A stretch of 64,000 bases of DNA from an uncultured Bacteroidales bacterium. Lineage in GTDB: Bacteria > Bacteroidota > Bacteroidia > Bacteroidales > FEN-979. A program made the translations under genes and the position numbers. The stretch lies in contig CAIVAT010000013.1 in NCBI GenBank assembly GCA_903903985.1, positions 1 through 64,000 of the forward strand. The letters run 5' to 3'. The notes below the pieces were generated by a model. It was given only the letters and a program-made list of their open reading frames with translations, had not been told where the DNA came from and made no database searches. Below are positions 12,152 to 56,420 of the stretch, in pieces. Numbering within the stretch: position 1 is the stretch's first letter; each line of letters begins with the position of its first letter.

Positions 12152-13492
12152 ATGAAAAAGACAACTTTAATGATTGCCATTTATATGATAATGATGGTAA
12201 TCACTGCCAATTCACAAATGTGGGTTACACAAAATGTAAACCCTGTAAACCAGGGATATAATTTTACCTGCCTGTCAGTGGTTGATCATAACACCGTTTT
12301 GGGCATAGGTACATTGATTGATGAGCCGGAAGGTTATAGATTTAATTATATCAGTCGTACGATTGATGGCGGGATGAACTGGAATAGCAATGCCCTTGAC
12401 ACAGACTGGATGGTATCAAGTTTCCAGGCCCTCAGTGCAGACACTGCATGGATGTCGACCGCCTCCATTCAGGGGATATACCATGGAGGTAATCATTTAT
12501 CATCCATCAGAAAAACAACAGATGGCGGGCAAACATGGATTAAAAACACCAGCATCACATTCGACAGCGTTAATTCTTATTGCGACTTCATGCATTTCTT
12601 TAATTCCAATGAAGGAGTTACTTTTGGCGATGTACATAATGGCGCCTGGGAAGTTTATTATACATCGGATGGAGGAATTCTCTGGAACATGGCTGACAGC
12701 CTGCCTCAACCTTTATCAGGAGAGGCAGTCCATGATAATACGCAATATGTGCTGGGTGATCATATCTGGGCAACATCGACCAAAGGAAGAGTTATATATT
12801 CTCAAGACAAGGGGCATATCTGGAAGGCCGCATCTGTGGGGAGCTTTCAGTTTCCGCTGATGTTGCGTGTTGCTTTTTTTGGTCCATTGGAAGGAATTGC
12901 AGCCAGGTATAATTATTCCAACAATGTTACTGATAATGTTTACCGCACCCATGACGGAGGCAAAACCTGGAGCAAAATTTCGCATACCGGACCGGTTTAC
13001 CTGTCCTATCCCGCAGGAAATCTTTTTATTGTCCCGGGTAGTAATATTGTGATTTCAAACGGTGGAGGAAGTTCATATTATGGCAGTTCTTTCAGCGCAG
13101 ATTATGGCGCAACGTGGACAGGTATTGATGCTTCGAAAAAATACGGAGTTGCTGACGGTAAAGACTGGAACTCACTTTGGACCGGGCAGTATTCAACTAT
13201 TCCCGGAATAGGTGGAATTGCAAAATGGGATGGCATCATCTTAGGGATGAACAGAATATTATTGGAGGGGGATCTTTCCATATATCCCAACCCCGCCACT
13301 GCTGCCATCACGATCTCAACGATCCTCCGTGGGCAACTCTTCGTCATGAATCTCAACAACCAGGAAATAATGCAACAAAAGATTACCCAACCAACCACTA
13401 CCATTGATATAAGCAATTTGCCAAAAGGGGTTTATGTGATAAAAATTATCGGGGACAGATGTGTACAGATGGGGAAGGTGATCAAACAATAA
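12152..13492 (+). CDS. T9SS cargo protein with BNR/YCF48-like repeats
   Basis: A 446-residue secreted or surface protein. It has a signal peptide (residues 1-21, ending ITANSQM). At least four repeats of the BNR/YCF48 kind follow, seen as RTIDGGMNWN, KTTDGGQTWI, YTSDGGILWN and RTHDGGKTW, which build a beta-propeller. The last 75 residues, from LSIYPNPATAAITIS to GVYVIKIIGDRCVQMGKVIKQ, are a type A T9SS sorting domain, which PorU-like sortases cleave after outer membrane passage. Ligand or activity is not visible. It reads as a single-gene unit with its own likely promoter at 11881-11911. Confidence 0.85.
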   Translation: MKKTTLMIAIYMIMMVITANSQMWVTQNVNPVNQGYNFTCLSVVDHNTVLGIGTLIDEPEGYRFNYISRTIDGGMNWNSNALDTDWMVSSFQALSADTAWMSTASIQGIYHGGNHLSSIRKTTDGGQTWIKNTSITFDSVNSYCDFMHFFNSNEGVTFGDVHNGAWEVYYTSDGGILWNMADSLPQPLSGEAVHDNTQYVLGDHIWATSTKGRVIYSQDKGHIWKAASVGSFQFPLMLRVAFFGPLEGIAARYNYSNNVTDNVYRTHDGGKTWSKISHTGPVYLSYPAGNLFIVPGSNIVISNGGGSSYYGSSFSADYGATWTGIDASKKYGVADGKDWNSLWTGQYSTIPGIGGIAKWDGIILGMNRILLEGDLSIYPNPATAAITISTILRGQLFVMNLNNQEIMQQKITQPTTTIDISNLPKGVYVIKIIGDRCVQMGKVIKQ

Positions 13493-25216: not shown

Positions 25217-26434
25217 TTAGTTTGTCCCAGCCGCTTTCTCTGCTTTTTTAGTATTGTCGAAGTTAAAGAGCAGGGTAAATTGCAGGGTATGTTGCAGCGG
25301 GTTGTTGTTCTTGATCGGGATCAGGTAGGAGAAATCGAGACCAAACACATTGTAGCGCAGGCCGGCGCCCAGGGTGAAAAATTGCCTGCCGCCCTTGTAT
25401 TTTGATTCATAAAAATAACCCGCACGGACTGAAAACAGTTTATTGTACCAATACTCGGCAGCCACGGAGAGGTTTATTTCCTGTATCTCTTCCTTGAAGC
25501 CATAGGGTGCATCGTAAAATGACTGGATCATGCCCTTGACGACAGAGACATCCGGATCCATCCCTTTGTAAATCACCCGCTTGCCATTTGCATCCGTACT
25601 GTCGGCACTTCCTGTGTGATCTTTCAGATAAACCGGTGGCGTCGGGACCAGCAGTTTTGCCAGGTCGAGTGAAATGGAGATCCGGTTATAATCATCAATA
25701 TCCATGGTGAACGAGGGGCCCAGGCGCAGCGTAGTGGGAATAAAATCACGCACGGTGGAAGTACTGCTGTATGACATTTTAACCCCGATGTTGGAGATAT
25801 CCAATCCAAAGTCGACAGAAGCGTTTGAAAGGCCTTTTATTTCCATTTCATGATGATAATACATTGCCACGTCGGCAGCAGCTGACATTCCTGGTTGAAC
25901 ACTCAGGTTTGCGAGATCGACCGGAACAAGGTTGGAATAGATGAACCGTCCCGCCACTGCACCGGAAAATTCACGGGAGAATTTACGTGCATAGGTTGCA
26001 TCAATGGCCCATTCATTGGGTTTTACTTCACCAAGTTCATTTCCGTCATTGTCGGTGAACATCACAGATCCCATGGAGAAAAAGCGCAGAGAGGCAGCGA
26101 TGGCTTGTTTGTCGCCTATCTTTCCGAAGCCAACCACCGAAGCCAGCCCGATATCGTTGACCAGACTGCGCAACCAGGGAACATACCCTATTCCAAAACC
26201 GAAGGTTTTATCAATAAAAGCATATTTTGCAGGATTCCAGAACATGGAATAGGTATCGGGTGTCGTGGCGGCTCCTACGTCACCCATGCCGCCTGATCGC
26301 GCATCAGGGGAAATGGTTAAAAAAGGAACCGCGGTAGAAATGACCCGGCTGCCGTCATCTGGTTCTGTGTCTTGCCCAAAGGTCCTGGATATTGCCAACG
26401 CGCATAAAATGATAAAAAATAATCTGATCTTCAT
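25217..26434 (-). CDS. porV: T9SS outer membrane shuttle protein PorV (LptO)
   Basis: A 405-residue outer membrane barrel of the FadL fold. PorV receives T9SS cargo from the translocon and carries it to the PorU sortase. It has a signal peptide (LFFIILCALAISRTFG). Family segments include VPFLTISPDARSGGMGDVGA, SMFWNPAKYAFID and the C-terminal YNVFGLDFSYLIPIKNNNPL. A TAATTTTG -7 element at about 26476-26483 (minus strand) suggests its own promoter, although the porU genes lie just upstream on the same strand, as in other Bacteroidota. Downstream ispF follows after 11 bp. Confidence 0.93.
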   Translation of the reverse strand: MKIRLFFIILCALAISRTFGQDTEPDDGSRVISTAVPFLTISPDARSGGMGDVGAATTPDTYSMFWNPAKYAFIDKTFGFGIGYVPWLRSLVNDIGLASVVGFGKIGDKQAIAASLRFFSMGSVMFTDNDGNELGEVKPNEWAIDATYARKFSREFSGAVAGRFIYSNLVPVDLANLSVQPGMSAAADVAMYYHHEMEIKGLSNASVDFGLDISNIGVKMSYSSTSTVRDFIPTTLRLGPSFTMDIDDYNRISISLDLAKLLVPTPPVYLKDHTGSADSTDANGKRVIYKGMDPDVSVVKGMIQSFYDAPYGFKEEIQEINLSVAAEYWYNKLFSVRAGYFYESKYKGGRQFFTLGAGLRYNVFGLDFSYLIPIKNNNPLQHTLQFTLLFNFDNTKKAEKAAGTN

Positions 26435-26622: not shown

Positions 26623-29600
26623 TTATCTTGTAATCATCAACTTTTGAGTTGTCTCTGAATAGGATCCATTCTTTGCTTTAAAAATAATTTTATAGGGATA
26701 GAGCCCGTTGGGGAGTTTATTTCCGTTAGAATCGGTGCCATCCCAGGGAATATTTGGTGATGATGCCAAAGTTCCGGTGTAGCTTTTTGCCAAAGAACAC
26801 ACCTGGATCCCTTTCAGGTTATAAATATTTATCTGCACATCCAGTCCTCCGCTGTCAAAAAGTTGTGGCTGAAACACGAAGTTGGTATGGTCAACCAGGG
26901 GGTTGGGTGCGGTCATCACATTCTTCACTGTCAAACCCGGGTGACTGGAAACATAGAACCGGATCTCACGAATGGATGAGTTATCAAACAGATCCCAGGC
27001 CTTCAAGCTCAGCGTATGTGTACCAGGAGTAAGACCATCGAGGGGGTAAGCCACGGTTCCGCGGGTGCAGGAATTAAACGCAGGAGCGTAATAATCATTC
27101 AGAACCATTGCGTTGGCTCGGTTGTTATCCAGCACCGCTTCAATCTCGTGACCGATGCCCAATCCAAGGCTGTTTATTCCATTTGTATCATAAAGATCCA
27201 CCAGTAAGATGGCAGCACTGCCGGTTTTTCCGCCGTTCACAAAGGACCGGTCATCCATGTAGAGGTTGATTGCGGGGCCCTGGTTTACCGGATTTATCGA
27301 TTCATCCCGTCCTCCGATGATGATCTGGTCAGAATATCCCGCCGCTTCCAAATTTTCATTGGAGGCAAAATAGCTGAGTTTCCCGTTTCCAAACTGCAGT
27401 GAGATGTTCCTGGGCACAACAAACGAGAGTTGGAAATCTCCCGATGATACAGGGACATCACCCTTAAAAAGCACGCTGTTCTGTATGGTAAAATTCTCCG
27501 GATAGGAACCATCCGTACCCGGGCGGTTTCCCAGGGTCGTATTGGTAACGGGTTTATCATATACCTTACAATTCACTACGCCATTGAACGAGGTTACTTT
27601 TTGCCCTGCTCCGTCTTCAATTTGCCCTTTAACGATCACCGTCGACATTCCCTTCACCGTAACAGGCTGTCCGGACTGGCCATTGATGGAAAGTGTTGCA
27701 ACATTATAGGCAGGGAATGCTATATTCTGGGCAGGGTCTCCCAGCAAAACAAAGTTGCGAAGCTGGGGATTGTTGTTGTTATCGTTTTTCGACAACCGGA
27801 TCAGATCACCCATCTTGATATATTTCCCATCTGTTCCTTTGTCCATGAAATGTTCAAAAAAACTTGTATTCAACAGAATATTCGTTGTAGCATAAGCGAG
27901 GCGGGTCGTCGAGTATAGTGCAATGGCACCTCCTTCCGGCTGAAGGATCAGCATTTCACCGGCCGTAAACCGCTCAGGATTGTCGAACCTGCTGAATTCA
28001 CAGGTTGCGGTCACAAAAACCGGGAGTTTATACTTGTTTTTCCACGACAGGATATCGGGGATGGTCAGCACCTGTTCAACCGCCCAACCGGTTTCGCCTC
28101 CATGCCCCGTATAATTAACCACCAGCGACCCTTTATTTACTGCATCCACAAGGGCCCGGTTGGCATCAGGGAAACGGGTTCCACCAGGAATTTCGATCAA
28201 TTTATACGCATCGAAATAAATTTTATTCAAATTGAATACCGGATATTTAGGACCAACCATAGCAACCATATCTTCCGCCTGGTGCAAGTGCAGGTTCCCG
28301 TTTTCATCATCCGCCACGAATGTGAGTGTATTCCGCCAATCAGTCCTGAACAGGGAAGAGGTCGAGGAATAGCTTAAAATTTTATCAACCATGTTTTGAG
28401 CTTCTGCAGTGGTTGAAACAGGAAACCTTCCTATGCCGATATTGATGGCGCCGTTTGCTTCCATGCCGGCATTGTCAGCCATGATCCCGAAGTAGTCGTC
28501 GGTGACATAAGTGGAAGTCGAATTCAGTGATTCAAATGACTGGAAGGTAGGTATAAGGTTGTTATTCCCCGGGATGCGATTTTTAGGGTCATAAGACCCA
28601 TCGCCGAAAAGCAGTAAATACTTCGGTTGGTTACCAGTTTGTGCCCGATCGTATAGCATTTTCATGTAATCGCGGATGGCTGTAGGATCAGGCTGGCCGC
28701 ATGAAAACTCATTGTAAACCTGGGCAGTGGTCACAACCTGCACGGTGAGTCCGTTGTGCTGACGGTGAAATTCGCCCAGCTGCTCCGCCTGTGCGAGGAA
28801 TATTGGATTTGTGACAATAACAAGGGTGACCGGAGCAGTGGAATGGATGTTTTGATTTTTCACTTCACCGGCACAGGTAACCGGGTAAACAAAAGAACCA
28901 TCGAAGGCAATGAATTCATGAAGGGAATCTGTAGTACGCTTAAACCGGAGGGTCCCCTCTTCCAGGGTCGTTTTGACGGCCATGATCGCGGAAGGATTTG
29001 AAACATCCCAGACTTTTACATCTGCATTGGCATTTTTCATCGAAAATTCAGTGGTCTTTCCCGGGCCAATGGTTTGCACATCCCTGAACGACATCTGGGG
29101 GCCATACCATGAAAGGTGGCGCCGGCAGGTTAATTCCAGGTAGTTAAGCCATCCTTTTGAATTGGAAGTAGGCATGTTGTAGGAAAGGGTTATTGTTTGA
29201 TCGGAAACCGGGGAGGAAACTGTTGTGAGTTTTGATTTTGACCTGCCGGCAAGCGTAAACACCCTTGGATCGGTGGAATCGATCATCAATGAATCAACAA
29301 TGCGTCCTGACTGGGAGAGATAGAAATAACTGTTTGCCGGGGAGTTGGCGGCAACATACCATTTGATCCTTACATTTGACATTGAATCGATACCCGGGAT
29401 CAAAAAGGGGAAAATCCATTCACTTTTAAGGTTATCAAACGTTTCACCGAACCATTCCCGCCCCGACCTGATCAGGTTCTGCTGGTCAAGTTCATGGGAC
29501 ATAAAATCGTCGTATCTCGATGAGAAGTTGTTGGGGTTTTCTGAGATGCCAGGCATCGGCTGCACACGTCTGCCTTCACGCTGGTCGAAATTCAGGAAGT

Positions 29601-30036
29601 AATAAGTAGAATCGGAATAAAGGTTTCGCTGGCGGCTATAGAAGCGGTTCAACGGGTCATATTTCCATTTATCGGCACCTTCACCATAGAAAAGGATATA
29701 ATCTGTTGCATCAAAGCGGCCATCGCCGCCATCTTCAACCTGAACGGAAATCTCACGCAAATCATCAATGCGGGTTGCGGAATTTACTTCCGGCAGCATC
29801 CCCGAGCCATTTCCGAATAATCGGATCCTGGCATCATCAACAGTGGACGGATCAATCCCTAAAGTCTTTAAATTATCCCAGGTTATCTTGTGGATCCCGG
29901 TGTGTGTGACTGCAAGTTTATACCATTTGCCTCTTGCAAGCACCGAAGAATCGGCATGGGGTATTGCCCCTGAAACAATAAGCGGCAGAAGGAATACAAT
30001 GAAAATCTGTATTTGTTTTCGCAAGAATGGCAGCAT
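26623..30036 (-). CDS. PorU-like T9SS sortase, second copy (shorter)
   Basis: A C25 (gingipain-family) cysteine peptidase of the PorU type; PorU cleaves the sorting domain from T9SS cargo and attaches the cargo to A-LPS. From ATG 30036 it has 1137 residues; the track's start adds 22 residues that overlap the upstream gene. Signal peptide: FIVFLLPLIVSGAI. Catalytic His645 (NYTGHGGETGW) and Cys679 (VTATCEFSRF) are kept, with the same 34-residue spacing as the neighbour. The C-terminus (GLYPYKIIFKAK...LMITR) is a sorting-domain-like fold. Compared with the upstream copy it lacks about 150 N-terminal residues. The two genes are 19 bp apart, so this looks like an old tandem duplication with specialisation. 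Confidence 0.85.
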   Translation of the reverse strand: MLPFLRKQIQIFIVFLLPLIVSGAIPHADSSVLARGKWYKLAVTHTGIHKITWDNLKTLGIDPSTVDDARIRLFGNGSGMLPEVNSATRIDDLREISVQVEDGGDGRFDATDYILFYGEGADKWKYDPLNRFYSRQRNLYSDSTYYFLNFDQREGRRVQPMPGISENPNNFSSRYDDFMSHELDQQNLIRSGREWFGETFDNLKSEWIFPFLIPGIDSMSNVRIKWYVAANSPANSYFYLSQSGRIVDSLMIDSTDPRVFTLAGRSKSKLTTVSSPVSDQTITLSYNMPTSNSKGWLNYLELTCRRHLSWYGPQMSFRDVQTIGPGKTTEFSMKNANADVKVWDVSNPSAIMAVKTTLEEGTLRFKRTTDSLHEFIAFDGSFVYPVTCAGEVKNQNIHSTAPVTLVIVTNPIFLAQAEQLGEFHRQHNGLTVQVVTTAQVYNEFSCGQPDPTAIRDYMKMLYDRAQTGNQPKYLLLFGDGSYDPKNRIPGNNNLIPTFQSFESLNSTSTYVTDDYFGIMADNAGMEANGAINIGIGRFPVSTTAEAQNMVDKILSYSSTSSLFRTDWRNTLTFVADDENGNLHLHQAEDMVAMVGPKYPVFNLNKIYFDAYKLIEIPGGTRFPDANRALVDAVNKGSLVVNYTGHGGETGWAVEQVLTIPDILSWKNKYKLPVFVTATCEFSRFDNPERFTAGEMLILQPEGGAIALYSTTRLAYATTNILLNTSFFEHFMDKGTDGKYIKMGDLIRLSKNDNNNNPQLRNFVLLGDPAQNIAFPAYNVATLSINGQSGQPVTVKGMSTVIVKGQIEDGAGQKVTSFNGVVNCKVYDKPVTNTTLGNRPGTDGSYPENFTIQNSVLFKGDVPVSSGDFQLSFVVPRNISLQFGNGKLSYFASNENLEAAGYSDQIIIGGRDESINPVNQGPAINLYMDDRSFVNGGKTGSAAILLVDLYDTNGINSLGLGIGHEIEAVLDNNRANAMVLNDYYAPAFNSCTRGTVAYPLDGLTPGTHTLSLKAWDLFDNSSIREIRFYVSSHPGLTVKNVMTAPNPLVDHTNFVFQPQLFDSGGLDVQINIYNLKGIQVCSLAKSYTGTLASSPNIPWDGTDSNGNKLPNGLYPYKIIFKAKNGSYSETTQKLMITR

Positions 30037-30055
30037 GGTTTGCAAATGTACGTAT

Positions 30056-33000
30056 TTAACGGATAACCACCAACTTCGAGGTTTGTTGCTCGGTGGTACC
30101 ATTCGGTATCATCAGTTGGACCTTGTAAACATACATCCCGGAACTGATTTTCGCGCCATTGTCCTGCGTTCCGTCCCATTGGATGGATGCATCGCGGAAG
30201 CCTTGCGAATAGAAGTTTTGCCGCAAGGTTTTCACCAGTCGCCCGTTGATGGTAAAAATCCGTATCTCAGCTTCAAGCGGCTGGTCCACCTGGTTTGTTT
30301 CCCAGGCAAACGTGGTGTGGTCAATCATGGGATTTGGATAAGCCACCAGGTGCTTTAAGGCAAATTCAGCTGAAGAAACAACCACAAAATCGATGCTGGC
30401 GTCGGTAGAGTTGTTGTAAACATCCCAGACTTTCACGGTTATCTGATGCGGGCCATCGCTGAGTGAACTGAGCTGGTATTTTATTTCACCGCTTTTAAAG
30501 GTGTTCATATCCGTAACGTAGTAGTCATTGAGGATCATTGGCGTGGTCGTTTTGCCGTCGAGCACAGCGGTAATATCATGGCCGATGCCATTCCCAACCG
30601 CATTGATGCCGGATGAATCGCTCACATCTGCCAAAAGAACCGGATTCTGATCGGTAATCCCGCCTGACCGGAACTGATGGTTATTCATAAAGAGCGCTAA
30701 TTCAGGTCCCTGTTCATCCGCAGGTGCCTGCTTGTTGTATCCTCCCACCTGGATATTGTAATCATACCCGTTGGCGTCGGTTTCGGGATTAAAGGCATAA
30801 TAACTGATCTTGCCAACACCAAATTCATAGGCAATATCTTTGGGAACAATAAACGAGAAAGAAAATGAGCCGTTCGTCACAGCCACTTTCCCGTGATATA
30901 CCGCATTCTTTCGCAGGAAGTACTGAACCGGTGGGCCTTCGCCGGCATTGGCCTTTGTCCAGATTTCAGATGATTTATCAAATACGGTGGGGACGACGGT
31001 TCCAATAAAGCTGGTATCTTTCTGTCCAAAGGCATCCCGAACCTCACCGGTAATGGTAACAACCGACAGTGCCGTCAGGGTATCAGGCACCGAAGATGGG
31101 TTGTGGGCATTGATGGAGGTGGTTACGACATTCAGGTCGGGGTAGGCCATCTGCATGGCCGGATCGCCCAGTAAAACAAAAGCATGAATGTTCGGGGAAT
31201 TACCCATGTCTTTTTTTGCAACCCTCAGTAAATCTCCAAGTTTAAGGTAGCTGCCGGAATATTTTTTAAAAACGTTGTTATAGAAATTGACCAGCAACGA
31301 CTTGTTTGTTCCGGCAAAAGTAAGCCGGGTGGTCGTAAAGAGTGCAACACCTCCCCCCTGGCTGTTTAAAAAGACATATTCACCTGCGGAAGCACGCTCC
31401 GGATCATCGAACCGGCTGAATTCGCATGTCGCGGTCACAAAAACAGGCAGGCTGTTGAAATTACGCCAGTTATTGATGTCTGGTACTTCCAATATTCGCT
31501 CATGTGCCCATCCTACCTCTCCGCCATGGCCCACATAGTTCATGATCAGTGCGCCTTTTTCGACCCTTTTGTTGATCACTTCGTTCACATCGGGGTACCG
31601 TGCCCCACCCGAGGTGGAAACTATGGGATAGGCATCGGAATATATTTTATCAACGTTGTATTTTTTATAAGAAGTTTCGACAAGGTTCGCAAGGTCTTCA
31701 GAATCTTCAATAAACAGGTTCCCGCCTTCATTCTGGTCATCGCTGACGAAAGTCACTACGTTGCGCCAGTCATTTTTAACAGCTTCACTTTGTGAACAGT
31801 AATGGATTACTTTGTCGACCGAAGCCCTTGCCTGCTCAATGTTGTCAACCGGGAACCGGCCGATGCCAATGTCGAGGTCGCCATTGGCCGATTGTCCTTC
31901 ATTGGCATCAAGCAACCCGAAATAATCATCTGATACAAAAGAGGAAACCGGTGAGAGGGATTCCACAGATTCAAAGGAAGGCACAAAATTGGTATTGTTT
32001 TGTGTTCTGTCCTTGAAATCGTAGGATGCATCGCCAAACAGCAGGAGATACCTGGGTTCTTTTCCGGGTTGTGCCTTGTTGTACATCATCCTGACAAAGT
32101 CGCGGATGGCAGTGATGTCCTGGGCCCCCGAGGAAAATTCGTTGTAAATTTTATCGGGAGTTGTGATAAACACCGACATGCCGCTGTTTGCCACATGAAA
32201 GGCTGCCAGCCGTTCAGCTTCACTAAGAAAAGCCGGATGGCAGATGATAAGATAATCAGCCGTTTCCGCACCATGAAGATCCTGATTTTCAACTTTGCCA
32301 ATGAATTCGGGAGTATTGTTAATGACACCACCATCAAATGCCATAAATTCCCGGAGGGTATCTGTTGGCACCCTGAACACATAATTACTTCCGTTCTGGC
32401 TTGTCTCAATGCGCCCGATGCTGCCAGCATGGGTGATATCCCATATCTGAACATTATAACCATTACCGTTCAGCGTGAATTCAGTTACTTTGCCTGGCCC
32501 GGTTCCGGCAACTGAGCGGAAAGCCAACTGAGATCCGTTCATGGCAATAGAACGCAAGGCATTTAACTCAAGATAATTCAGGTAACCCACCGAACTTGAT
32601 GAACTTTTATTAAAAGTAAGTTTCAGGTCAATGACAGGATTTGAAGTTGCAAATGTGGCCAGGCCTGTTTTCGCCTTCGCAAAATCATCATCAAAAACAC
32701 CTGAAATTGGTGGAATGTAAATGGTCATCAGGGCATTTCCCTGTGCCGAAATATTAAAAGAGGTGCTGGTGCCAATGGAACGCGCAGCCACGTATGCAAG
32801 CACCGAAACAGGGCTCAGCGCATCAATACCAGGAAAGTTGAAGGAGTAGTTGCGTGTGGTGGTTACATCGAAATACTGGTGGTCCCACCACTGACGGCCT
32901 GATTTGATCAGGTTGACATCATCCATTTCATATGAAGCAAAATCCTCGAATTTGCTGGCAAGGAAGGTAGGTGAATCTGTTGTGGAGGGTATTGCCGATA

Positions 33001-33916
33001 TTCTCTTTCCCGGGCCTTTATCAAAATTAAGGAAATAATACATGTGATCAGAATAGATATTTTTCCTGAGGTGGAAAAGCTGGTCGGTTGCGTTGTAATC
33101 CCACCGGTTGGGTCCTTGCCCGTAGAACAGCAGGTAATCTGCCGCATCAAACGAACCATCAGCCTCGCCGGAGACGAAGATCGCATTCTCCATCAGATCG
33201 TCGATGCGCGCAGCCGAATTCGCTTCGGGAAGCATGCCTCCCCCATTTCCATATATCCGGATATTCCGTGGGTCAATGCTGCCAACATCAATGCCGGCTT
33301 TTTTCAGGTCATTGTAGGAAAGCCGGTAAATTCCATCAGCACCGACCGAAAATTTAAACCATGCCCCAGAGGCAAGCACTGAATTTGGACTGTAAGAGAC
33401 AGCGGATTTGACTAAAGCCTGGTTTTTTTTCACAACAGTATGAATATCAAGACCGAATGAAACCAGTCGCTCAATTTTTCCGGTAGCATTGTTCAGATGC
33501 AATGGGAGCAGCCGGACCACCAGCGAGGTTTTCTTCCTGGCAACCGATAACAGGTGAACGATGTTGATATCCGCCGAAATTTTATCCAGGTCCTTCACCA
33601 TCTCCAGGTTTTCGTCACTTACCTGTTCGTAAACCGGGTTGTTCATCATCACTTCAACAAGGGAATCATGCATTGGATCAAATGGAAAAGATTTTGTGAA
33701 TACCGGTAAAACACCATAATCCTCAGCCATGACAGACCCTTCAAATGATAAAATTTTTTCGATTGGTGAATGACCATCCGATATCAGCCTTGGTGCGTTC
33801 CATGAAATCCTGTAATGGAAAATAGCGCCTGAACCATTGGCTTTCAAAGCAATAAAAGGGGTGAAAGCCATCAAAACCAAAAGAAACAGGAACGAAAAGT
33901 GTTTTTTTGTATCCAT
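30056..33916 (-). CDS. porU: Type IX secretion system sortase PorU
   Basis: A 1286-residue C25 cysteine peptidase, the full-length PorU of the locus. It removes the T9SS C-terminal domain from cargo at the cell surface and acts with PorV. A signal peptide (FLFLLVLMAFTPFIALKA) and an N-terminal beta domain (about 30-180) precede the shared core starting ASGAWFKFSVGADGIYRLSY. The catalytic residues are His797 (NYVGHGGEVGW) and Cys831 (VTATCEFSRF). The C-terminal 90 residues end AYPNPMIDHTTF and GMYVYKVQLMIPNG, a sorting-like domain that PorU itself keeps. It lies divergent from the PorP/SprF gene and in line with a shorter PorU paralogue and porV. Confidence 0.92.
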   Translation of the reverse strand: MDTKKHFSFLFLLVLMAFTPFIALKANGSGAIFHYRISWNAPRLISDGHSPIEKILSFEGSVMAEDYGVLPVFTKSFPFDPMHDSLVEVMMNNPVYEQVSDENLEMVKDLDKISADINIVHLLSVARKKTSLVVRLLPLHLNNATGKIERLVSFGLDIHTVVKKNQALVKSAVSYSPNSVLASGAWFKFSVGADGIYRLSYNDLKKAGIDVGSIDPRNIRIYGNGGGMLPEANSAARIDDLMENAIFVSGEADGSFDAADYLLFYGQGPNRWDYNATDQLFHLRKNIYSDHMYYFLNFDKGPGKRISAIPSTTDSPTFLASKFEDFASYEMDDVNLIKSGRQWWDHQYFDVTTTRNYSFNFPGIDALSPVSVLAYVAARSIGTSTSFNISAQGNALMTIYIPPISGVFDDDFAKAKTGLATFATSNPVIDLKLTFNKSSSSSVGYLNYLELNALRSIAMNGSQLAFRSVAGTGPGKVTEFTLNGNGYNVQIWDITHAGSIGRIETSQNGSNYVFRVPTDTLREFMAFDGGVINNTPEFIGKVENQDLHGAETADYLIICHPAFLSEAERLAAFHVANSGMSVFITTPDKIYNEFSSGAQDITAIRDFVRMMYNKAQPGKEPRYLLLFGDASYDFKDRTQNNTNFVPSFESVESLSPVSSFVSDDYFGLLDANEGQSANGDLDIGIGRFPVDNIEQARASVDKVIHYCSQSEAVKNDWRNVVTFVSDDQNEGGNLFIEDSEDLANLVETSYKKYNVDKIYSDAYPIVSTSGGARYPDVNEVINKRVEKGALIMNYVGHGGEVGWAHERILEVPDINNWRNFNSLPVFVTATCEFSRFDDPERASAGEYVFLNSQGGGVALFTTTRLTFAGTNKSLLVNFYNNVFKKYSGSYLKLGDLLRVAKKDMGNSPNIHAFVLLGDPAMQMAYPDLNVVTTSINAHNPSSVPDTLTALSVVTITGEVRDAFGQKDTSFIGTVVPTVFDKSSEIWTKANAGEGPPVQYFLRKNAVYHGKVAVTNGSFSFSFIVPKDIAYEFGVGKISYYAFNPETDANGYDYNIQVGGYNKQAPADEQGPELALFMNNHQFRSGGITDQNPVLLADVSDSSGINAVGNGIGHDITAVLDGKTTTPMILNDYYVTDMNTFKSGEIKYQLSSLSDGPHQITVKVWDVYNNSTDASIDFVVVSSAEFALKHLVAYPNPMIDHTTFAWETNQVDQPLEAEIRIFTINGRLVKTLRQNFYSQGFRDASIQWDGTQDNGAKISSGMYVYKVQLMIPNGTTEQQTSKLVVIR

Positions 33917-34046: not shown

Positions 34047-35042
34047 ATGCTGCGCCGGTTTTTCTTAATCGTATTGTTTGTCGTTCCGCTGGTTTTGGGG
34101 AAGGTATTTGCCCAGGATCCTGAGTTTTCTCAGTTTTATGCCAATCCGCTTTATCTTAACCCAGCTCTTGCCGGGGTCACCATTTGCCCCAAAGCGAATG
34201 CAAACTACCGCAATCAATGGCCGGGGATCGGAAAATCATTCATTACCTATAATGTATCCTACGATCAATATGTTAATTTTCTGCATGGCGGACTCGGGAT
34301 TATTCTTACCGCTGACAGGGCGGGGAACGGGAACCTCAACACAACAGCCATCAGTTTGATGTATGCCTATAAATTCAACCTCACTGAACATTTGCAGGCG
34401 AGCGGAGCGCTTAAGGTTGGATATTATCAAAGAACTCTTGTCTGGGAGAACCTGATTTTCGGAGATCAGATCGACCCGCTTAACGGGAATATCAATCCCT
34501 ACACCAAGGACAAAGCACCAGATAACAGTACCATAGGCGTACCTGACTTCTCGACCGGAATTTTCCTGGCGTACGATGATCTCATTTACGGAGGTATTGC
34601 TGTGGATCACCTCACCCAGCCAGACGTTGGGTTTTATGCCTCAAATAACACACCGCTTTTTATGAAATACACCGTTCATGTTGGTTCGGTGATCAACCTT
34701 CACAAAAATGGCGGTACCGGTGAAGATCGCGAATTTTCAATATCCCCCAACATTTTATACCAGCAGCAGTTTCAATTTCATCAACTCAACATCGGGTTGT
34801 ACGTTACCGTCGATCCCTTTATCGGAGGTATATGGTTCCGTCACAATTTCGAAAATGCCGATGCCGTCATCCCGATGATCGGTCTCCATTACAAAAGTTT
34901 ACGAATCGGATACAGTTATGACTATACCGTCAGTTCATTAAGGAGCGCTTCCGGTGGTGCACATGAAGTTTCTGCCTCATGGCAATTCCCATGTCTGGAA
35001 AAAAGAAGACACCTCAGGGCAATAAAATGCCCAAGATTTTAG
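34047..35042 (+). CDS. PorP/SprF-family T9SS outer membrane protein
   Basis: A 331-residue outer membrane protein of the PorP/SprF family, barrels that anchor T9SS ring or cargo to the outer membrane. Signal peptide: FLIVLFVVPLVLGKVFAQ. The family start DPEFSQFYANPLYLNPALAG is unmistakable, as are YRNQWPGIGKSFITYNVSYD and the ending VSASWQFPC. A TATTTTTG -7 element lies at 33999-34006. Many Bacteroidota have several paralogues, so I do not assign porP or sprF. Transcription is toward gldJ, 118 bp downstream, which has its own promoter. Confidence 0.92.
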   Translation: MLRRFFLIVLFVVPLVLGKVFAQDPEFSQFYANPLYLNPALAGVTICPKANANYRNQWPGIGKSFITYNVSYDQYVNFLHGGLGIILTADRAGNGNLNTTAISLMYAYKFNLTEHLQASGALKVGYYQRTLVWENLIFGDQIDPLNGNINPYTKDKAPDNSTIGVPDFSTGIFLAYDDLIYGGIAVDHLTQPDVGFYASNNTPLFMKYTVHVGSVINLHKNGGTGEDREFSISPNILYQQQFQFHQLNIGLYVTVDPFIGGIWFRHNFENADAVIPMIGLHYKSLRIGYSYDYTVSSLRSASGGAHEVSASWQFPCLEKRRHLRAIKCPRF

Positions 35043-42755: not shown

Positions 42756-44417
42756 CTATTGCTTTATTATTTTCCGGACAAAAAACCGGTCACCATCGTC
42801 GATCGTCACAAGGTACATCCCTGCAGCAAATCCCGACAGATCAACCTGCCTGTTCTGGGTCATTGTACCATTCCATCTCATTTCGTAACGTTTGTTCCCA
42901 AACAGGTCATGAATGGTTACCTGAAGGAATTTTGTGCAACTCAATGAAACGCCGATATTTAACTTGTCCATCACCGGGTTTGGGAAAAGAGTCAACCAAT
43001 CGTTTTGTGCAGTTTCCGGAACAGATAACGCCCAGCCATTCAGTGTCATGACGTCTGTATTATTGGGATCAAGCCAGTATTTTAGCACGCTTGCTGAATC
43101 GGTTCCGTTCTGATCCCAATGGTAAGAGAACATGCCGTAGTAGTCCGGCAAATTCAAAGACATTGAATCACATGATGAATCTCCGCCTGTGAGGGTTCCC
43201 ACCAACCGTCCCTGGCTGTCGAACAAAGGAGAGCCTGATGAACCGCCTTCAGTCGTTCCGTGCCCGTTGGGGGTTCCTGTCCAGGTAACACGCCAGTGTG
43301 AAAGTGCCGGATTGCCAACCCAGTGCGATGGAGTGAGTAGTGAGGTATAGGTAGAGATTTTTTTGATGTCCCCCTGTGGGTGATGAATACTGGTACCGGA
43401 AGCACTTGCAGGGGTGGTTTCACGAGTCCAACCATTGAAATAGACGTTGTATGAAGCGGGGATTGCCGAAGATAACAGCACCAGGAAAAAATCAGACCCG
43501 GTGTTACCGGCATCACCTCCATGGGCTATCAGTGTGGCTCCAGATATTGATTTCAGTGGAGGTTCGTTCGCTGGATCCTTGCAGCCTGATCCCTGGTAGT
43601 TAAATGCAAACACCCATTGGCTTAAGTCAGTCGCAGTAGCCGATTTGCCGCAATGGTCAGCAGTAATCAGGTAAGGTTTTCCATCATTCCGTGTATTGTT
43701 GACCAATGACCCGGTACACCAAAGGGAGGAACTTCCCCGTTTAACCATGATCCGCGCCACACTGCGGATTTCCTTCTGCCAGTTGGTGCCTTCTGTGCAA
43801 TTTACATTCACTTCGCAGGGTCCGGAGCTGCCAAACCCGGCCGGTGTCCTGTCATCGCCCGATACCCCCCGGTATGCATGACCCAATTCTGAAATATGCA
43901 GCTCAGGCATGGAAAGATCTTCCGGAGCGTTGTATTCAATTGTGAGCGCATCCCCGTATATCAATCCTGTGGCGAAAGTTGACAGATTGTTGTTATTTAT
44001 TGAGGTAAATGCGCCAAGAAGTTGTGTCCGTTTTGGATTATATACAAATACTTTGCCCCCTTCGGGAACATGGTAACGATCAAAGTAAAGGATCAGCCCA
44101 AGTGCCCCCGGCGATTTAATGCTGAGCCGCCAGACTTTGGTTCCGCCGGCAGTTCTTTGCCATTGTCCTTGCTCAATCCCCAGATTAACAGGTAAGTTAA
44201 CGGCAAACCGGTAGGGTACGGGCGACTGATTATCCTCCACTGTCAATTTATCCACCGAAACGGGCTCATCAGCCCGATAAATGTTCGTGTCAGGGGCGAT
44301 GGATAAAGAAAAACTGCATGGCACACCCCCTGTACTCAATTGTGCCGACAGCGTCGCAGGCAAGGAAATGATAACCATTGCAATCATACAAAGGATGGCG
44401 TTCAACCGTGATTTCAT
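42756..44417 (-). CDS. Trypsin-like serine peptidase, T9SS cargo
   Basis: A 553-residue secreted serine peptidase resembling bacterial lysyl endopeptidase (Lys-C) in layout. A signal peptide (MVIISLPATLSAQ) and a pro-region of about 150 residues come first. The catalytic triad is His255 (ITADHCG), Asp309 (NTGSDFFLV) and Ser394 (EGGSSGSPLF). The cysteine-rich catalytic domain (CEVNVNCTEGTNWQ, SLWCTGSLVNN) suggests disulfides, as in related enzymes. The last 75 residues (LTLFPNPVMDKLNIGV to MYLVTIDDGDRFFVRKIIKQ) are a type A T9SS sorting domain. The gene is 55 bp from mqnE and 10 bp from the next cargo gene, same strand, so both cargoes may be cotranscribed. Confidence 0.88.
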   Translation of the reverse strand: MKSRLNAILCMIAMVIISLPATLSAQLSTGGVPCSFSLSIAPDTNIYRADEPVSVDKLTVEDNQSPVPYRFAVNLPVNLGIEQGQWQRTAGGTKVWRLSIKSPGALGLILYFDRYHVPEGGKVFVYNPKRTQLLGAFTSINNNNLSTFATGLIYGDALTIEYNAPEDLSMPELHISELGHAYRGVSGDDRTPAGFGSSGPCEVNVNCTEGTNWQKEIRSVARIMVKRGSSSLWCTGSLVNNTRNDGKPYLITADHCGKSATATDLSQWVFAFNYQGSGCKDPANEPPLKSISGATLIAHGGDAGNTGSDFFLVLLSSAIPASYNVYFNGWTRETTPASASGTSIHHPQGDIKKISTYTSLLTPSHWVGNPALSHWRVTWTGTPNGHGTTEGGSSGSPLFDSQGRLVGTLTGGDSSCDSMSLNLPDYYGMFSYHWDQNGTDSASVLKYWLDPNNTDVMTLNGWALSVPETAQNDWLTLFPNPVMDKLNIGVSLSCTKFLQVTIHDLFGNKRYEMRWNGTMTQNRQVDLSGFAAGMYLVTIDDGDRFFVRKIIKQ

Positions 44418-44427
44418 GCGCTGATAA

Positions 44428-46254
44428 TTATGGATGGATAACGGAAATTTTACGCGTCACTTTATCCTTCTCCGTGGAAATTCGAAGGAGGTAAACCCCC
44501 TGAGGAATCTCATGGATGTCAAGGGTCACTTTTCCGGAAACAGGGACCTCCTTCCATGATGAAATAGTTTCTCCCAGGATGCTGATCATTTCAATATTCA
44601 CCGGCACCGGGCTGCTTACCGGGCAATTAATGTTCAAATAATCAGTTGCCGGGTTCGGAAAAACGACCAGGCGGCTCAGTGGACCGGTCTCATTCAAACC
44701 AACAGTGGAGGTGACGAAAATATCATCCAGCATAAAAATGAACCCGTCGTTTGTCACGCACTGGATGCCAAGATATATATCCTGGTTGGTATAATCCTGC
44801 AGGCTGTATGTCTTCTTCGTCCAATCAACAGGAGCAGCTTCAGGCTGAAGAGTTAACGGAATGAAACTGGAAGAAGCCAGGTCGGTGGTGGAAACAGAAA
44901 CATTGAAACGCTCATCTCCAAATTGGTTGTTAAAGGTTTTGACCCATAATTCAACCTGCGGGTTGATCCCGAGGCTGAGCTTTGGCGAGATCAGCCATTT
45001 ATCATTCGGGTTATTGGGCGGAGCTGATGAAAAACTGCAGCCAAGTTTCTGCCCGGAATGCGCTTGCAAATTTGTCATCGGCGGAGTTGTTTTTGCCGGA
45101 TTAAAACAAATATAAGCCATTGGTTGATAATTATTTGGAAAGAACACAGATTGAATTCCATAGGTAGCCCCTCCCTTTTTATCGATCACCATCCATGGGT
45201 CGAAGACCATATTAAAATCAATGACCTCTTCAAAATCCAGGGTAATGGAGGATGGATAGTCGGAAACACTGACATAGGCCGTTTTAGTAATGGAATCTCC
45301 GACGGATCCATTGCTCACCTTCAGGCTTACCGGGTAATTTCCGGGAGTGTTATACCTGATCCCGGTCGGGTTCTGGAGGATGGAAGTTGCAGGAATCCCT
45401 CCGGTAAATTTCCATGACCAGGTAACGGGCCCACCTGTAGACTGGTCTAAAAAATTAACTGTTTCGCCTGCCCGGAGTGAAGTTTTATCTCCTGAAAAAT
45501 CGGCAGTGAGGGATAAAGATGCCTGTGGCCTGATTTCGAGATCATCAATCATCATCAGGAAATGGTCATTGGAAGTACAGTTTATGGCGACGTACACCTG
45601 CTGATTGTTGTAATTGGCAAGTGAAAAATTCTTCTTGCCCCATGTGGTGGTGGTCTGCAATGGCTGGGCACCGGAAATTACAGTAAAACTCGCGGGGTTG
45701 TTATCTGTTGTTGAAACAGCCACCGTATAGGTGTCCAGCCCATAGGTGTCATTGTACGATTTAACCCAGAATGAGAAACTGCCATTGGAGCCCAGTTGAA
45801 TCCGTGGAGAGATGAACCAATCGTTGTTTGATGGCGGGTTGGATGAAAAACAGGCACCGAACCGCGCTCCGGAATGAGGCTGAATTGCCTGATCTGTGGC
45901 CATGGATGGAGCAACCAGCGCAGGATTAAAACAAAGGAAGGCCATGGGCCCGGTCTGATGAAGAAATGAATAACCGGTGATACCGTAAGTGTCATGCTTG
46001 TCGACATCATTTACCGTCCAATTGTTGAAAACGAGAGAAAAATCCGGTACATTTTCAAAATCCATGATGTAGGTGCCTGTATCGGGAGTTGCGGCGGAAC
46101 GATCAGGCTTTGCCGGATAGGATAAATAAAAACCAGCATGATCCATCTGCAACGACCCAACAGGTGACATCCGGCGAGCAATCCCCTGGCCCGACAATCC
46201 GGAAGACCCAATCAGAAAAACGATGGAAGCAAGGAGAAATAACCTGGTTTTCAT
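44428..46254 (-). CDS. T9SS cargo: two choice-of-anchor J domains around a PKD domain
   Basis: A 608-residue exported protein (ATG 46254, signal peptide LFLLASIVFLIGSSGLSGQ; the track's start adds ten residues that overlap the promoter). Two paired jelly-roll, MAM-like (choice-of-anchor J) domains: MDFENVPDFSLVFNNWTVND and LDFEEVIDFNMVFDPWMVID start them, and NDWFISPRIQLG and DKWLISPKLSLG mark each. Between them is a PKD domain (VTWSWKFTGGIPATS). The last 80 residues (RLVVFPNPATDYLNINC to GVYLLRISTEKDKVTRKISV) are a T9SS sorting domain. Ligand unknown; adhesive or enzyme-associated roles are common for this layout. Confidence 0.85.
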   Translation of the reverse strand: MKTRLFLLASIVFLIGSSGLSGQGIARRMSPVGSLQMDHAGFYLSYPAKPDRSAATPDTGTYIMDFENVPDFSLVFNNWTVNDVDKHDTYGITGYSFLHQTGPMAFLCFNPALVAPSMATDQAIQPHSGARFGACFSSNPPSNNDWFISPRIQLGSNGSFSFWVKSYNDTYGLDTYTVAVSTTDNNPASFTVISGAQPLQTTTTWGKKNFSLANYNNQQVYVAINCTSNDHFLMMIDDLEIRPQASLSLTADFSGDKTSLRAGETVNFLDQSTGGPVTWSWKFTGGIPATSILQNPTGIRYNTPGNYPVSLKVSNGSVGDSITKTAYVSVSDYPSSITLDFEEVIDFNMVFDPWMVIDKKGGATYGIQSVFFPNNYQPMAYICFNPAKTTPPMTNLQAHSGQKLGCSFSSAPPNNPNDKWLISPKLSLGINPQVELWVKTFNNQFGDERFNVSVSTTDLASSSFIPLTLQPEAAPVDWTKKTYSLQDYTNQDIYLGIQCVTNDGFIFMLDDIFVTSTVGLNETGPLSRLVVFPNPATDYLNINCPVSSPVPVNIEMISILGETISSWKEVPVSGKVTLDIHEIPQGVYLLRISTEKDKVTRKISVIHP

Positions 46255-46281
46255 GGAGTAGGTTTTACGGATTTGAAAATA

Positions 46282-46289
46282 CAAAGGTA
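46282..46289 (-). promoter_or_regulatory. Candidate -7 element for the two cargo genes
   Basis: The minus strand reads TACCTTTG, 27 bp before the ATG at 46254. No clear -33 TTG is at the expected distance. Its position supports the shorter start. Confidence 0.4.
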
Positions 46290-53498: not shown

Positions 53499-56420
53499 AT
53501 GAAAAAGTATTTATTTCTTTTTGTCATGGCTATTGGCTTTAGTATCCTTGGGATGGGACAAGCCATTCTTTATGAAGACTTTAACTATACACCACCAGCC
53601 TATATCGGAGGGAATGGAAATGCTGGCTCCACTTCCAATAACTGGACAACGCATAGTGTTACCGCAGGACAAACAACCACCGTTGATATACAAAGTGGCA
53701 GTTTATCGTATACCGGATTAGCAACATCCACTGGCAATAAAGTTTACCTGTTCAGCAATGCAAATGCTACCTCCCGGGATGTGAACCGTCCTTATACCAC
53801 AACGGCAACTGCAATTTACTATTCTGCACTGGTCTCGGTTATCGACAATTCGCAGATTTCTGCTGCAACACCTGATTATTTCATGTGCCTTGGTCAAACT
53901 GCAGGAACAACCGTTACAATTTTATCTGGCCGTCTTGGAATTAAATCCGTGAACACTGGCGCCAACTTCCGTTTGAGCATCCTGAATACTTCGGGAGGAA
54001 CTCCTGTATTTACTGAATTTGCCCAGGATCTTACTTTTGGCACAACTTACCTTGTTGTTGTGAAAGTTGACAGGAGTACAACCCCCATCACCGCCAGCCT
54101 CTGGGTGAATCCTTCCAGTATTGGCGGGACGGAGCCAACAGGACAAATAACAAATAACAGTGGAACCGGAGCATTCACAGGCTTTGCATCCATCTGTCTC
54201 AGAAATTCCGCAACAACACCCAAAGCAAATATTGATGAGATCAGGGTCGGAACCACCTGGGCCGATGTTACACCAACAGGGACCGTTGCGCCTCCCACCG
54301 TTCAAACATCAAACTTTACCTTCGCAAACGTCCTGCAAACCCAGATGGATGTTTCCTGGACCAATGGAGACGGTGCCAAACGCGTTATCAAGATGAATAC
54401 GACCAATTCATTCACAGCACCTGCGGATGGTACAGATCCTACTGCCGATCCATTTTATGACAGTGGCGAACAAGTGATTTATAATGGTACCGGAAGTACC
54501 GTTCCGACGGTAACCGGCCTCACAGCCAATACTACCTATTGGTTCAAAGCATGGGAATACAATGGATCAGGAAGTTTGACGGCTTATTATACCGGCGTTG
54601 GTGCCAATAACCCTTTAAGTCGTGTAACTGCTGCCAGTGCAACTGCTCCTGTCATCATCGATCCTACCGCAACTTCAATCGGGCAGATTTCGGCTGTTCT
54701 TGGCGGTAACATCACCGCCGACGGAGGTGCTGCCATCACCGAGCGCGGAACCTGCTGGAGTGAGAATTCCCCGGTTGGTTATAATGACCATAGACAGGCT
54801 GAAGGATCAACGGCAACCGGTGTTTTTACCCAAACCGTTTCCGGATTCCCGGCTAACAAGCTGATCTATTATGCTGCATATGCAACCAACAGCCAGGGAC
54901 ACTCCCTTGTCGAATCAAGCTTTACCACATTGCCGGGCGAGCCAACCAACCATGCTACCTTGTTTACTGCTACATCTCCTACCTATTCTTCAGTCACGAA
55001 TACCTGGTCAGACAATAACGGAGCGCAAGCAGCCACAGGATTCCTGATCCTCGCCAACACAACCGGTATTTTCACAGATCCTGTAGACGGGGTGCAACCT
55101 GCTTCCGATCCAAGCTTAACCGACGGCACCGGCCTCGTGTATGTCAACCCAGGAGTCGGAACCTATACCTGGTATTATCTTTACGCATCAACACCCTATT
55201 ATTTTGCCATTTATCCATATACCAACTCAGGAGCCAATATCGATTACAAAACCTCTGCTCCTGTTCCCAATGCAACCGTAACCACCCTTCCTTTTGTAAG
55301 CCCGGTTGCTGCGTGGACTTTTGACACAACACCTCCGTCTGCCGCTGGCCCACCAGTTACAGAAACCCCTACTTCAGTAGCCGCTGAGTTCGGCGATCAG
55401 ATCGGTACTGCATATCTTTATGCCGATGGTACCAATGGTTCCACTTTATGGAACAATACTACAAGCGGCAACGAATTGACTGCATTCGGTGGCTCAACCA
55501 TCAATGATCCAAGACAAGGGGCTGCTATACTGGCAGGAATGGCTTATTCACCTGTTGCAGGAACAGGATTGTCCGCAAACGGGAAAACCATGGTGATCAA
55601 ATTCTCTATGACCGCCCTGCTGGACCCGATCTTATCATTTGTAACCCGGGGTACAACTACAGGTTTTAACAGCCAGACCTGGGAATGGAGTACAAATGGC
55701 ACGGTATTTACCCCTTTCGGATCAAACACCGGTGACAATACTGCCAGTTTTGTTTTGAAAACGCTTGACATGAGTGCGATTAACGACCTGGACGGGGCAG
55801 CAGAAGTTTACCTGAGGGTTACTTTTAGCGGTGCTACCAATGCTTCCGGGAACAACCGCCTCGACAACATCGTGATCCGTGCGACCCCAAATACCGGCCC
55901 CCCGGCTACCCTTTCTGTTAGCGGAACCCTATTACCAGGACAATCCCAGTGTTATAACGCCACCAGCACCATCACGGTTGCCGGTTACGATCTTCCAGCC
56001 ACTGCAAGCGCTACGATGATTGCAGGCCAGAATATCTTATATGAACCTGACACCTGGATTCATGCAGGAGCTTACATGTGGGGAAAAATCGCCACGTCCT
56101 ATTGCTCAAAATCACCATCCATGGCCGAAGTTACTTTACCAAAAGAAGAACCTGCAGCCATCAGCCTGATGGATAATGACTTCAGGATCTATCCGAACCC
56201 GACAAGCGGTGTATTCACGCTTGAGCAACGGGGTGAGAACGTAACCGGTACCGTGCGTGTTGAGGTTCTCAACACACTGGGTGGCAAAATTCTCAGTTCT
56301 GAACTGCAAGGCTTGCGTAAACATGAGCTTTCCATCAAAGGCAACCCTTCCGGGATTTATTTTGTAAAAATAATGGCTGGTGAAAAAGTTCAGACCGTGA
56401 AAATCATCCTTACCAACTAA
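53499..56420 (+). CDS. Large T9SS cargo protein with beta-sandwich and Fn3-like domains
   Basis: A 973-residue secreted protein. A signal peptide (LFLFVMAIGFSILGMGQ) opens it. The first 260 residues form a jelly-roll (YEDFNYTPPAYIGGNGNAGS to IDEIRVGTTWADVTP), then Fn3-like repeats with VTGLTANTTYWFKAWEYNGS, an ITERGTCWS block and a further jelly-roll (AWTFDTTPPSAAG to LDNIVIRATP). The C-terminal 85 residues (FRIYPNPTSGVFTLEQR to GIYFVKIMAGEKVQTVKIIL) are a type A T9SS sorting domain. A TATTTTTG -7 element lies at 53462-53469. A strong terminator follows. No catalytic motif is visible; adhesion or matrix role is a guess. Confidence 0.85.
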   Translation: MKKYLFLFVMAIGFSILGMGQAILYEDFNYTPPAYIGGNGNAGSTSNNWTTHSVTAGQTTTVDIQSGSLSYTGLATSTGNKVYLFSNANATSRDVNRPYTTTATAIYYSALVSVIDNSQISAATPDYFMCLGQTAGTTVTILSGRLGIKSVNTGANFRLSILNTSGGTPVFTEFAQDLTFGTTYLVVVKVDRSTTPITASLWVNPSSIGGTEPTGQITNNSGTGAFTGFASICLRNSATTPKANIDEIRVGTTWADVTPTGTVAPPTVQTSNFTFANVLQTQMDVSWTNGDGAKRVIKMNTTNSFTAPADGTDPTADPFYDSGEQVIYNGTGSTVPTVTGLTANTTYWFKAWEYNGSGSLTAYYTGVGANNPLSRVTAASATAPVIIDPTATSIGQISAVLGGNITADGGAAITERGTCWSENSPVGYNDHRQAEGSTATGVFTQTVSGFPANKLIYYAAYATNSQGHSLVESSFTTLPGEPTNHATLFTATSPTYSSVTNTWSDNNGAQAATGFLILANTTGIFTDPVDGVQPASDPSLTDGTGLVYVNPGVGTYTWYYLYASTPYYFAIYPYTNSGANIDYKTSAPVPNATVTTLPFVSPVAAWTFDTTPPSAAGPPVTETPTSVAAEFGDQIGTAYLYADGTNGSTLWNNTTSGNELTAFGGSTINDPRQGAAILAGMAYSPVAGTGLSANGKTMVIKFSMTALLDPILSFVTRGTTTGFNSQTWEWSTNGTVFTPFGSNTGDNTASFVLKTLDMSAINDLDGAAEVYLRVTFSGATNASGNNRLDNIVIRATPNTGPPATLSVSGTLLPGQSQCYNATSTITVAGYDLPATASATMIAGQNILYEPDTWIHAGAYMWGKIATSYCSKSPSMAEVTLPKEEPAAISLMDNDFRIYPNPTSGVFTLEQRGENVTGTVRVEVLNTLGGKILSSELQGLRKHELSIKGNPSGIYFVKIMAGEKVQTVKIILTN

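What the first reader, a model, noticed from the sequence alone, without database searches (positions are those of the whole stretch)
26623..33916. Tandem PorU-type sortases next to porV
Two C25 sortase genes lie 19 bp apart, both with intact catalytic His and Cys at identical 34-residue spacing, but the second lacks about 150 N-terminal residues. Usual T9SS loci have one porU. The second copy might process a subset of cargo or be an accessory.
Basis: partly seen in the sequence, partly recalled or inferred. Interest (0 to 1): 0.55.

Follow-up and report, generated by a model that had tools for sequence, protein, structure and literature searches.

The report
Ancient tandem pair of PorU sortases
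This uncultured Bacteroidales bacterium, like many of its relatives, carries two side-by-side copies of porU, the enzyme that trims and anchors proteins exported by the type IX secretion system; the pair comes from one old duplication that has been kept ever since, which suggests the two enzymes do different jobs.

Summary
Two intact porU genes sit 19 bp apart beside porV. Both encode genuine PorU: curated PorU model 1345 and 1249 bits against a cut-off of 420; closest solved structure P. gingivalis PorU 6za2; intact His/Cys dyad in both. Neither is the separate NCBI family called 'PorU2'. The pair is not a local oddity. It occurs in every family member whose contig spans the locus and in many other families of the order, always as gldJ-porP-||-porU1-porU2-porV-ispF; elsewhere in the phylum a second copy is rare. 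A mixture-model tree groups all upstream copies in one clade and all downstream copies in another: one ancient tandem duplication, with order kept. An AU test rejects a duplication confined to this family (p=0.003). The ~150 residues missing from PorU2 are predicted to be a gingipain-type prodomain. It has been lost in either copy in different families, and P. gingivalis PorU lacks it too, so it does not define the second copy. Both copies are under strong purifying selection and share one PorV, PorQ and PorZ. PorU copy number rises with T9SS cargo load. Best reading: two active, diverged sortases that share the cargo. The division of labour is inferred.

The parts
30056..33916 (-). porU1, upstream copy, 1286 aa, 'long form' PorU
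   Evidence: NF033707 1345 bits (cut-off 420); NF052318 long-form N-terminal domain 41.6 bits (cut-off 40); PDB 6za2 E 7e-152
33431..33835 (-). N-terminal prodomain of PorU1, residues 28-162, absent from PorU2
   Evidence: AlphaFold2 pLDDT mostly 92-98 over this stretch; Foldseek best PDB hits are the RgpB prodomain 4ief (E 8e-6) and Kgp prodomain 5mun (E 5e-4)
31148..32254 (-). C25 catalytic domain of PorU1, H797/C831
   Evidence: PF01364 364 bits; catalytic columns
30878..31000 (-). region of the first Ig-like domain of PorU1 that corresponds to the latency beta-hairpin of P. gingivalis PorU
   Evidence: alignment region; hairpin function from PMC10202324; position inferred, not mapped on coordinates
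30059..30358 (-). C-terminal domain of PorU1 (T9SS export signal; expected to stay attached to PorV)
   Evidence: TIGR04183 20.7 bits, just under cut-off; FlgD_ig 26 bits
26623..30036 (-). porU2, downstream copy, 1137 aa, short form without prodomain
   Evidence: NF033707 1249 bits; 6za2 E 7e-135; model of the protein matches 6za2 with Foldseek E 1e-76
27730..28821 (-). C25 catalytic domain of PorU2, H645/C679
   Evidence: PF01364 363 bits; both residues invariant among 19 PorU2 proteins of the family
27445..27582 (-). long beta-hairpin predicted in PorU2 (strands 819-833 and 848-864), candidate latency hairpin
   Evidence: AlphaFold2 secondary structure (tip pLDDT under 50); sequence block
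26626..26928 (-). C-terminal domain of PorU2
   Evidence: FlgD_ig-like, 22 bits; aligned to the PorU1 CTD
30037..30055 (-). 19 bp between the PorU1 stop and the PorU2 start
   Evidence: sequence
25217..26434 (-). porV, the single canonical shuttle/anchor of the attachment complex
   Evidence: NF033710 480 bits; only one canonical copy in the genome
24723..25205 (-). ispF, conserved downstream neighbour
   Evidence: homologue in the same place next to porV across relatives; name from the reviewer's own knowledge
34047..35042 (+). porP/sprF-family gene, divergent neighbour
   Evidence: TIGR03519 232 bits
35161..36636 (+). gldJ, conserved upstream neighbour
   Evidence: TIGR03524 479 bits, cut-off 458

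Best explanation
porU1 and porU2 are two active type IX secretion sortases made by one ancient tandem duplication and kept in order next to porV. Each is secreted by the T9SS, stays bound to PorV through its own C-terminal domain, and cuts the C-terminal signal from cargo, either releasing it or joining it to surface lipopolysaccharide supplied by the shared PorQ-PorZ pair. PorU1, the slower-evolving copy, most likely keeps the general ancestral role. PorU2 has diverged and most likely handles part of the very large cargo set, or a different rate or acceptor. They also differ in how they are kept inactive before assembly: PorU1 carries a gingipain-type prodomain, PorU2 does not and would rely on the hairpin-mediated latency known in P. 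gingivalis. Shown here: gene content, homology, one ancient duplication, conservation, intact dyads, shared single partners. Inferred: enzymatic activity, PorV binding of both, and the split of work.
For: Both copies far exceed the PorU equivalog cut-off and have 6za2 as nearest solved structure. His and Cys are intact in every tandem copy whose catalytic region was available (one copy was truncated before it). All complete loci of the family carry the pair in one gene order, two genomes with three copies. In the IQ-TREE LG+C20 tree the upstream copies form one clade (SH-aLRT 95), the downstream copies another (99), their union 99, with single-copy PorU outside; a family-specific duplication is rejected, p-AU 0.003. 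dN/dS is about 0.07-0.11 where computable in both copies, with dS near saturation. One canonical PorV, one PorQ, one PorZ in the window's genome. PorU2 is further from single-copy PorU in every domain, most in Ig-like domain 2 and the CTD. In genera g2/g3 one copy keeps Glu after GHGG and Arg four after the catalytic Cys, while another has V/W, T/W, I/Y, D/H or D/Q, which suggests a changed pocket. Proxy cargo counts are higher with two or more PorU (median 160 vs 78, p 7e-10; 8 of 9 within-family contrasts, p 0.04). The window's genome has at least 150 type A CTD proteins.
Against: No biochemical or expression evidence exists for either copy. Few positions cleanly separate the clades (5 at 75%), and in the window itself the residues next to the dyad are the same in both, so a specificity split is not proven. 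Cargo counts are first-look candidates in MAGs, not controlled for genome size, fragmentation or contamination. Pure dosage would also fit a large cargo load.
Confidence: 0.6

Rival explanations
1. Gene dosage: the two enzymes do the same job and the second copy only raises sortase capacity for a very large set of T9SS cargo.
For: PorU copy number goes with cargo counts; three copies in two genomes of the family and in L186; identical residues around the dyad in the window's two copies.
Against: The copies have stayed two separate clades at about 41% identity with no sign of gene conversion homogenising them; PorU2 has a longer stem and diverges more from single-copy PorU; pocket residues differ between copies in g2/g3.
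Confidence: 0.22
2. Regulatory partner: PorU1 and PorU2 form mutually inhibiting heterodimers through the latency hairpin, or the PorU1 prodomain restrains PorU2 in trans, so that the pair controls when sortase activity switches on.
For: P. gingivalis PorU is inactive as a dimer in which one monomer's beta-hairpin blocks the other (PMC10202324); both copies keep the hairpin region and its sequence differs between copies in this family: PorU1 loses the TLGN block that PorU2 and many single-copy PorU keep; one copy usually has and one lacks the prodomain in f1.
Against: Both copies keep the full dyad, so neither looks like a dedicated inhibitor; in genus g8 both lack the prodomain and in many families both have it; no complex was modelled.
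Confidence: 0.13
3. The second gene is a non-sortase C25 protease or the family NCBI calls PorU2.
For: PorU2 has weak similarity to NF052324, 182 bits against a cut-off of 450.
Against: It scores 1249 bits on PorU, PorU1 scores just as weakly on NF052324 (200 bits), and the tree puts it inside PorU.
Confidence: 0.02
4. Assembly artefact or a decaying duplicate.
For: The window comes from a draft genome in 195 contigs, 87% complete; its named relatives are nearly all metagenome-assembled.
Against: The same pair is found in many independent assemblies, both ORFs are intact and under purifying selection.
Confidence: 0.01

Closest known systems
Type IX secretion sortase PorU of Porphyromonas gingivalis (PDB 6za2)
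   Same: Sequence matches along nearly the whole chain for both copies, with His/Cys dyad, Ig-like domains and CTD; PorU2 also lacks the prodomain, as P. gingivalis PorU does
   Different: P. gingivalis is described with one porU; here two diverged copies sit in tandem and PorU1 has an extra prodomain
PorU 'long form' (NCBIfam NF052318 plus NF033707)
   Same: PorU1 passes both cut-offs; gene order gldJ / porU / porV is the usual one in Bacteroidota
   Different: PorU2 has no NF052318 domain; the locus has a second copy
NCBIfam NF052324, putative sortase PorU2
   Same: Shares remote sequence similarity with PorU
   Different: Both window proteins are far below its cut-off; the name PorU2 here means only 'second copy' and is not that family
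Gingipain RgpB and Kgp prodomains (4ief, 5mun)
   Same: Predicted fold of the PorU1 N-terminal domain matches them best in the PDB
   Different: 10-13% identity, TM-score about 0.4-0.5; inhibition by this domain in PorU is not shown

Membership tests
T9SS sortase PorU (NF033707) | Whole-protein score above the curated equivalog cut-off | tested here: met
   1345 and 1249 bits, cut-off 420
T9SS sortase PorU (NF033707) | C25 domain with His/Cys dyad | tested here: met
   PF01364 about 360 bits each; H797/C831 and H645/C679
T9SS sortase PorU (NF033707) | PorU domain architecture (N-terminal cluster, catalytic domain, two Ig-like domains, uncleaved-type CTD) | tested here: met
   End-to-end sequence match to 6za2 for both, Foldseek E 1e-76 for PorU2; the PorU2 model is weak in the catalytic domain
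T9SS sortase PorU (NF033707) | Linked to porV and the rest of the attachment complex present | tested here: met
   porV adjacent; one PorQ and one PorZ in the genome
T9SS sortase PorU (NF033707) | CTD cleavage and transpeptidation to A-LPS | not testable with these tools
   needs protein or mutants
PorU long form (NF052318) | N-terminal long-form domain above cut-off | tested here: met
   PorU1 only, 41.6 bits against 40; PorU2 has no hit
NCBI putative PorU2 (NF052324) | Score above curated cut-off of 450 bits | tested here: not met
   182 and 200 bits
C25 gingipain prodomain | Prodomain fold | tested here: met
   PorU1 only; Foldseek E 8e-6, probability 1.00, TM about 0.47; Pfam found no family by sequence
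C25 gingipain prodomain | Inhibits the attached protease | not testable with these tools
   needs purified protein
Latent dimer of PorU | Latency beta-hairpin in the first Ig-like domain | tested here: inconclusive
   Region present in both; long hairpin predicted in PorU2 with a low-confidence tip

The most novel reading that the evidence does not exclude
The T9SS attachment complex of a large part of the Bacteroidales exists in two forms built on the same PorV-PorQ-PorZ, one with PorU1 and one with PorU2, that differ in cargo or in the surface acceptor, so that the cell sorts its exported proteins between fates such as anchored versus released.
Probability: 0.25. Interest if true: 0.7.

Novelty: new variant of a known kind. 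Interest (0 to 1): 0.45.

Why it matters
A 2023 T9SS review states that how PorU chooses between releasing and anchoring a cargo remains to be unravelled (PMC10202324). A pair of diverged PorU enzymes kept together since before many families split is a natural experiment on that question: each copy can be deleted and the cargo fates read out. It also indicates that 'one porU per system' is not general in the order and that short and long PorU differ by a gingipain-like prodomain lost several times.

Tried and rejected
(1) Membership of PorU2 in NCBI's 'PorU2' family or a non-sortase C25 group: rejected by score and tree. (2) A duplication specific to the window's family, which the first FastTree left open: rejected after adding other families. 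(3) The missing N-terminus as the mark of the second copy: rejected, it is lost in either copy. (4) Pfam search of the N-terminal domain found nothing even at E 10; the fold search identified it. (5) AU test on 58 rows with the mixture model did not finish in two calls; repeated on 26 rows with LG+G4. (6) Clean specificity-determining positions: only five at 75% in both clades. (7) Paper searches for two porU or porU paralogues found no report in the open-access library held here; subscription papers are not covered, and the primary paper on PorU latency was not held, so a review was used. (9) Rfam found no structured RNA in the window.

Full report
What is there. On the minus strand, porU1 (30056-33916, 1286 aa) is followed by porU2 (26623-30036, 1137 aa if started at the ATG that opens a signal-peptide-like N-terminus), then porV and ispF. 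porP and gldJ are divergent on the other side. The gap between the two porU genes is 19 bp. The dyads are H797/C831 and H645/C679, 34 apart in both.

What they are. Both proteins score far above NCBI's curated PorU model (1345 and 1249 bits, cut-off 420) and both are well below the cut-off of the family NCBI calls PorU2. The nearest solved structure for each is dimeric latent PorU of P. gingivalis, 6za2. A model of PorU2, weak in the catalytic domain because only 19 related sequences were aligned, still finds 6za2 first with E 1e-76. The other three C25 genes in the genome are PorU-unlike; at least two of them carry a type A CTD and look like secreted cargo proteases.

Distribution. All genomes of the window's family whose contig covers the locus have the pair in one gene order, and two of them (G019, G026) have three copies. 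Named relatives are uncultured Bacteroidales, many from lakes and sediments, with Lentimicrobiaceae further out. In 197 genomes of the order, 175 have PorU and about 54 give two or more matches; a few of these are gene fragments. In an even sample of the phylum only the window's genome and 3 others of 269 had two (only two candidates per genome were scored there). In the pairs listed that lie close together on one contig, the upstream copy scores higher on the PorU model than the downstream copy.

History. The first FastTree showed two fully supported clades inside the family. With other families added, all downstream copies fell together. An IQ-TREE LG+C20 tree of 58 rows gives upstream copies as one clade (95), downstream copies as another (99), the union at 99, and single-copy PorU outside. 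Forcing the family's two copies together is rejected (p-AU 0.003, LG+G4, 26 rows) and the second copies form one clade with 99. So one tandem duplication preceded the split of many families, and the order has been kept. Within the family both copies show dN/dS of roughly 0.07-0.11 where it could be computed; dS is close to saturation.

The missing N-terminus. AlphaFold2 folds residues 28-162 of PorU1 with high confidence, and the best PDB matches are the prodomains of RgpB (4ief, E 8e-6) and Kgp (5mun, E 5e-4). Long-form PorU therefore appears to carry a gingipain-like prodomain. It is missing from PorU2 in this family, from PorU1 in f6 (L061) and, by length, in f170, and from both copies in genus g8, while many families keep it in both copies. 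P. gingivalis PorU also lacks it. Its absence is a recurrent loss and not the mark of an accessory protein.

Function. P. gingivalis PorU works in a complex with PorV, PorQ and PorZ (PMC5562754) and is latent as a dimer in which a beta-hairpin of one monomer blocks the other (PMC10202324). The window's genome has one canonical PorV, one PorQ and one PorZ, so two PorU must share them. Both copies keep the hairpin region, with different sequence. Downstream copies lie further from single-copy PorU in every domain, most in the second Ig-like domain and the CTD. In genera g2 and g3 the residue after GHGG and the residue four after the catalytic Cys change together in one copy and stay Glu/Arg in another, a hint of a changed pocket; in the window's own pair they are the same. 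Proxy counts of type A CTD cargo are about twice as high in genomes with two or more PorU (median 160 vs 78) and higher in 8 of 9 within-family contrasts; the window's genome has at least 150. These counts are first-look candidates and are not corrected for genome size or assembly quality. Together they favour two active, diverged enzymes sharing a heavy cargo load over simple dosage, but do not prove it.

Verdict. A real, conserved and apparently unreported arrangement in the open-access literature searched; a new variant of a known system, of moderate interest because it makes the choice of cargo fate by PorU testable by gene deletion.

Noticed in passing
L195:2307-7831 (own genome, contig C18): A 1467-aa protein with no NCBIfam match lies directly upstream of, and overlapping, a third PorV/PorQ-family gene that is neither PorV nor PorQ by cut-off. 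In several genus members a protein of similar size with a PorU/PorZ-like C-terminal domain sits in the same place. It may be a dedicated cargo-shuttle pair.
   Followed up: partly
L058 and L057 (genome G038): This genome of another family has two unlinked short porU genes and two tandem porZ genes but one strong PorV match; the attachment complex may have been duplicated in a different way there.
   Followed up: no
L045 and L046: Three tandem porU copies, with different residues next to the catalytic His and Cys in each copy.
   Followed up: partly
L059:8309-12043 (genome G039): A very divergent second porU-like gene (490 bits) directly after a normal one, on a long tree branch.
   Followed up: no
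G000 contigs C115, C90, C67: Three further C25 proteases in the window's genome; at least two (858 and 700 aa) end in a type A T9SS sorting domain, so they look like gingipain-type cargo.
   Followed up: partly
window 42756-46284, 12152-13492, 53499-56420: Four likely T9SS cargo proteins with type A sorting domains in the window.
   Followed up: partly
L161, L156, L179: The first porU copy is split into two ORFs in these relatives, either by a frameshift in the assembly or by real loss.
   Followed up: no
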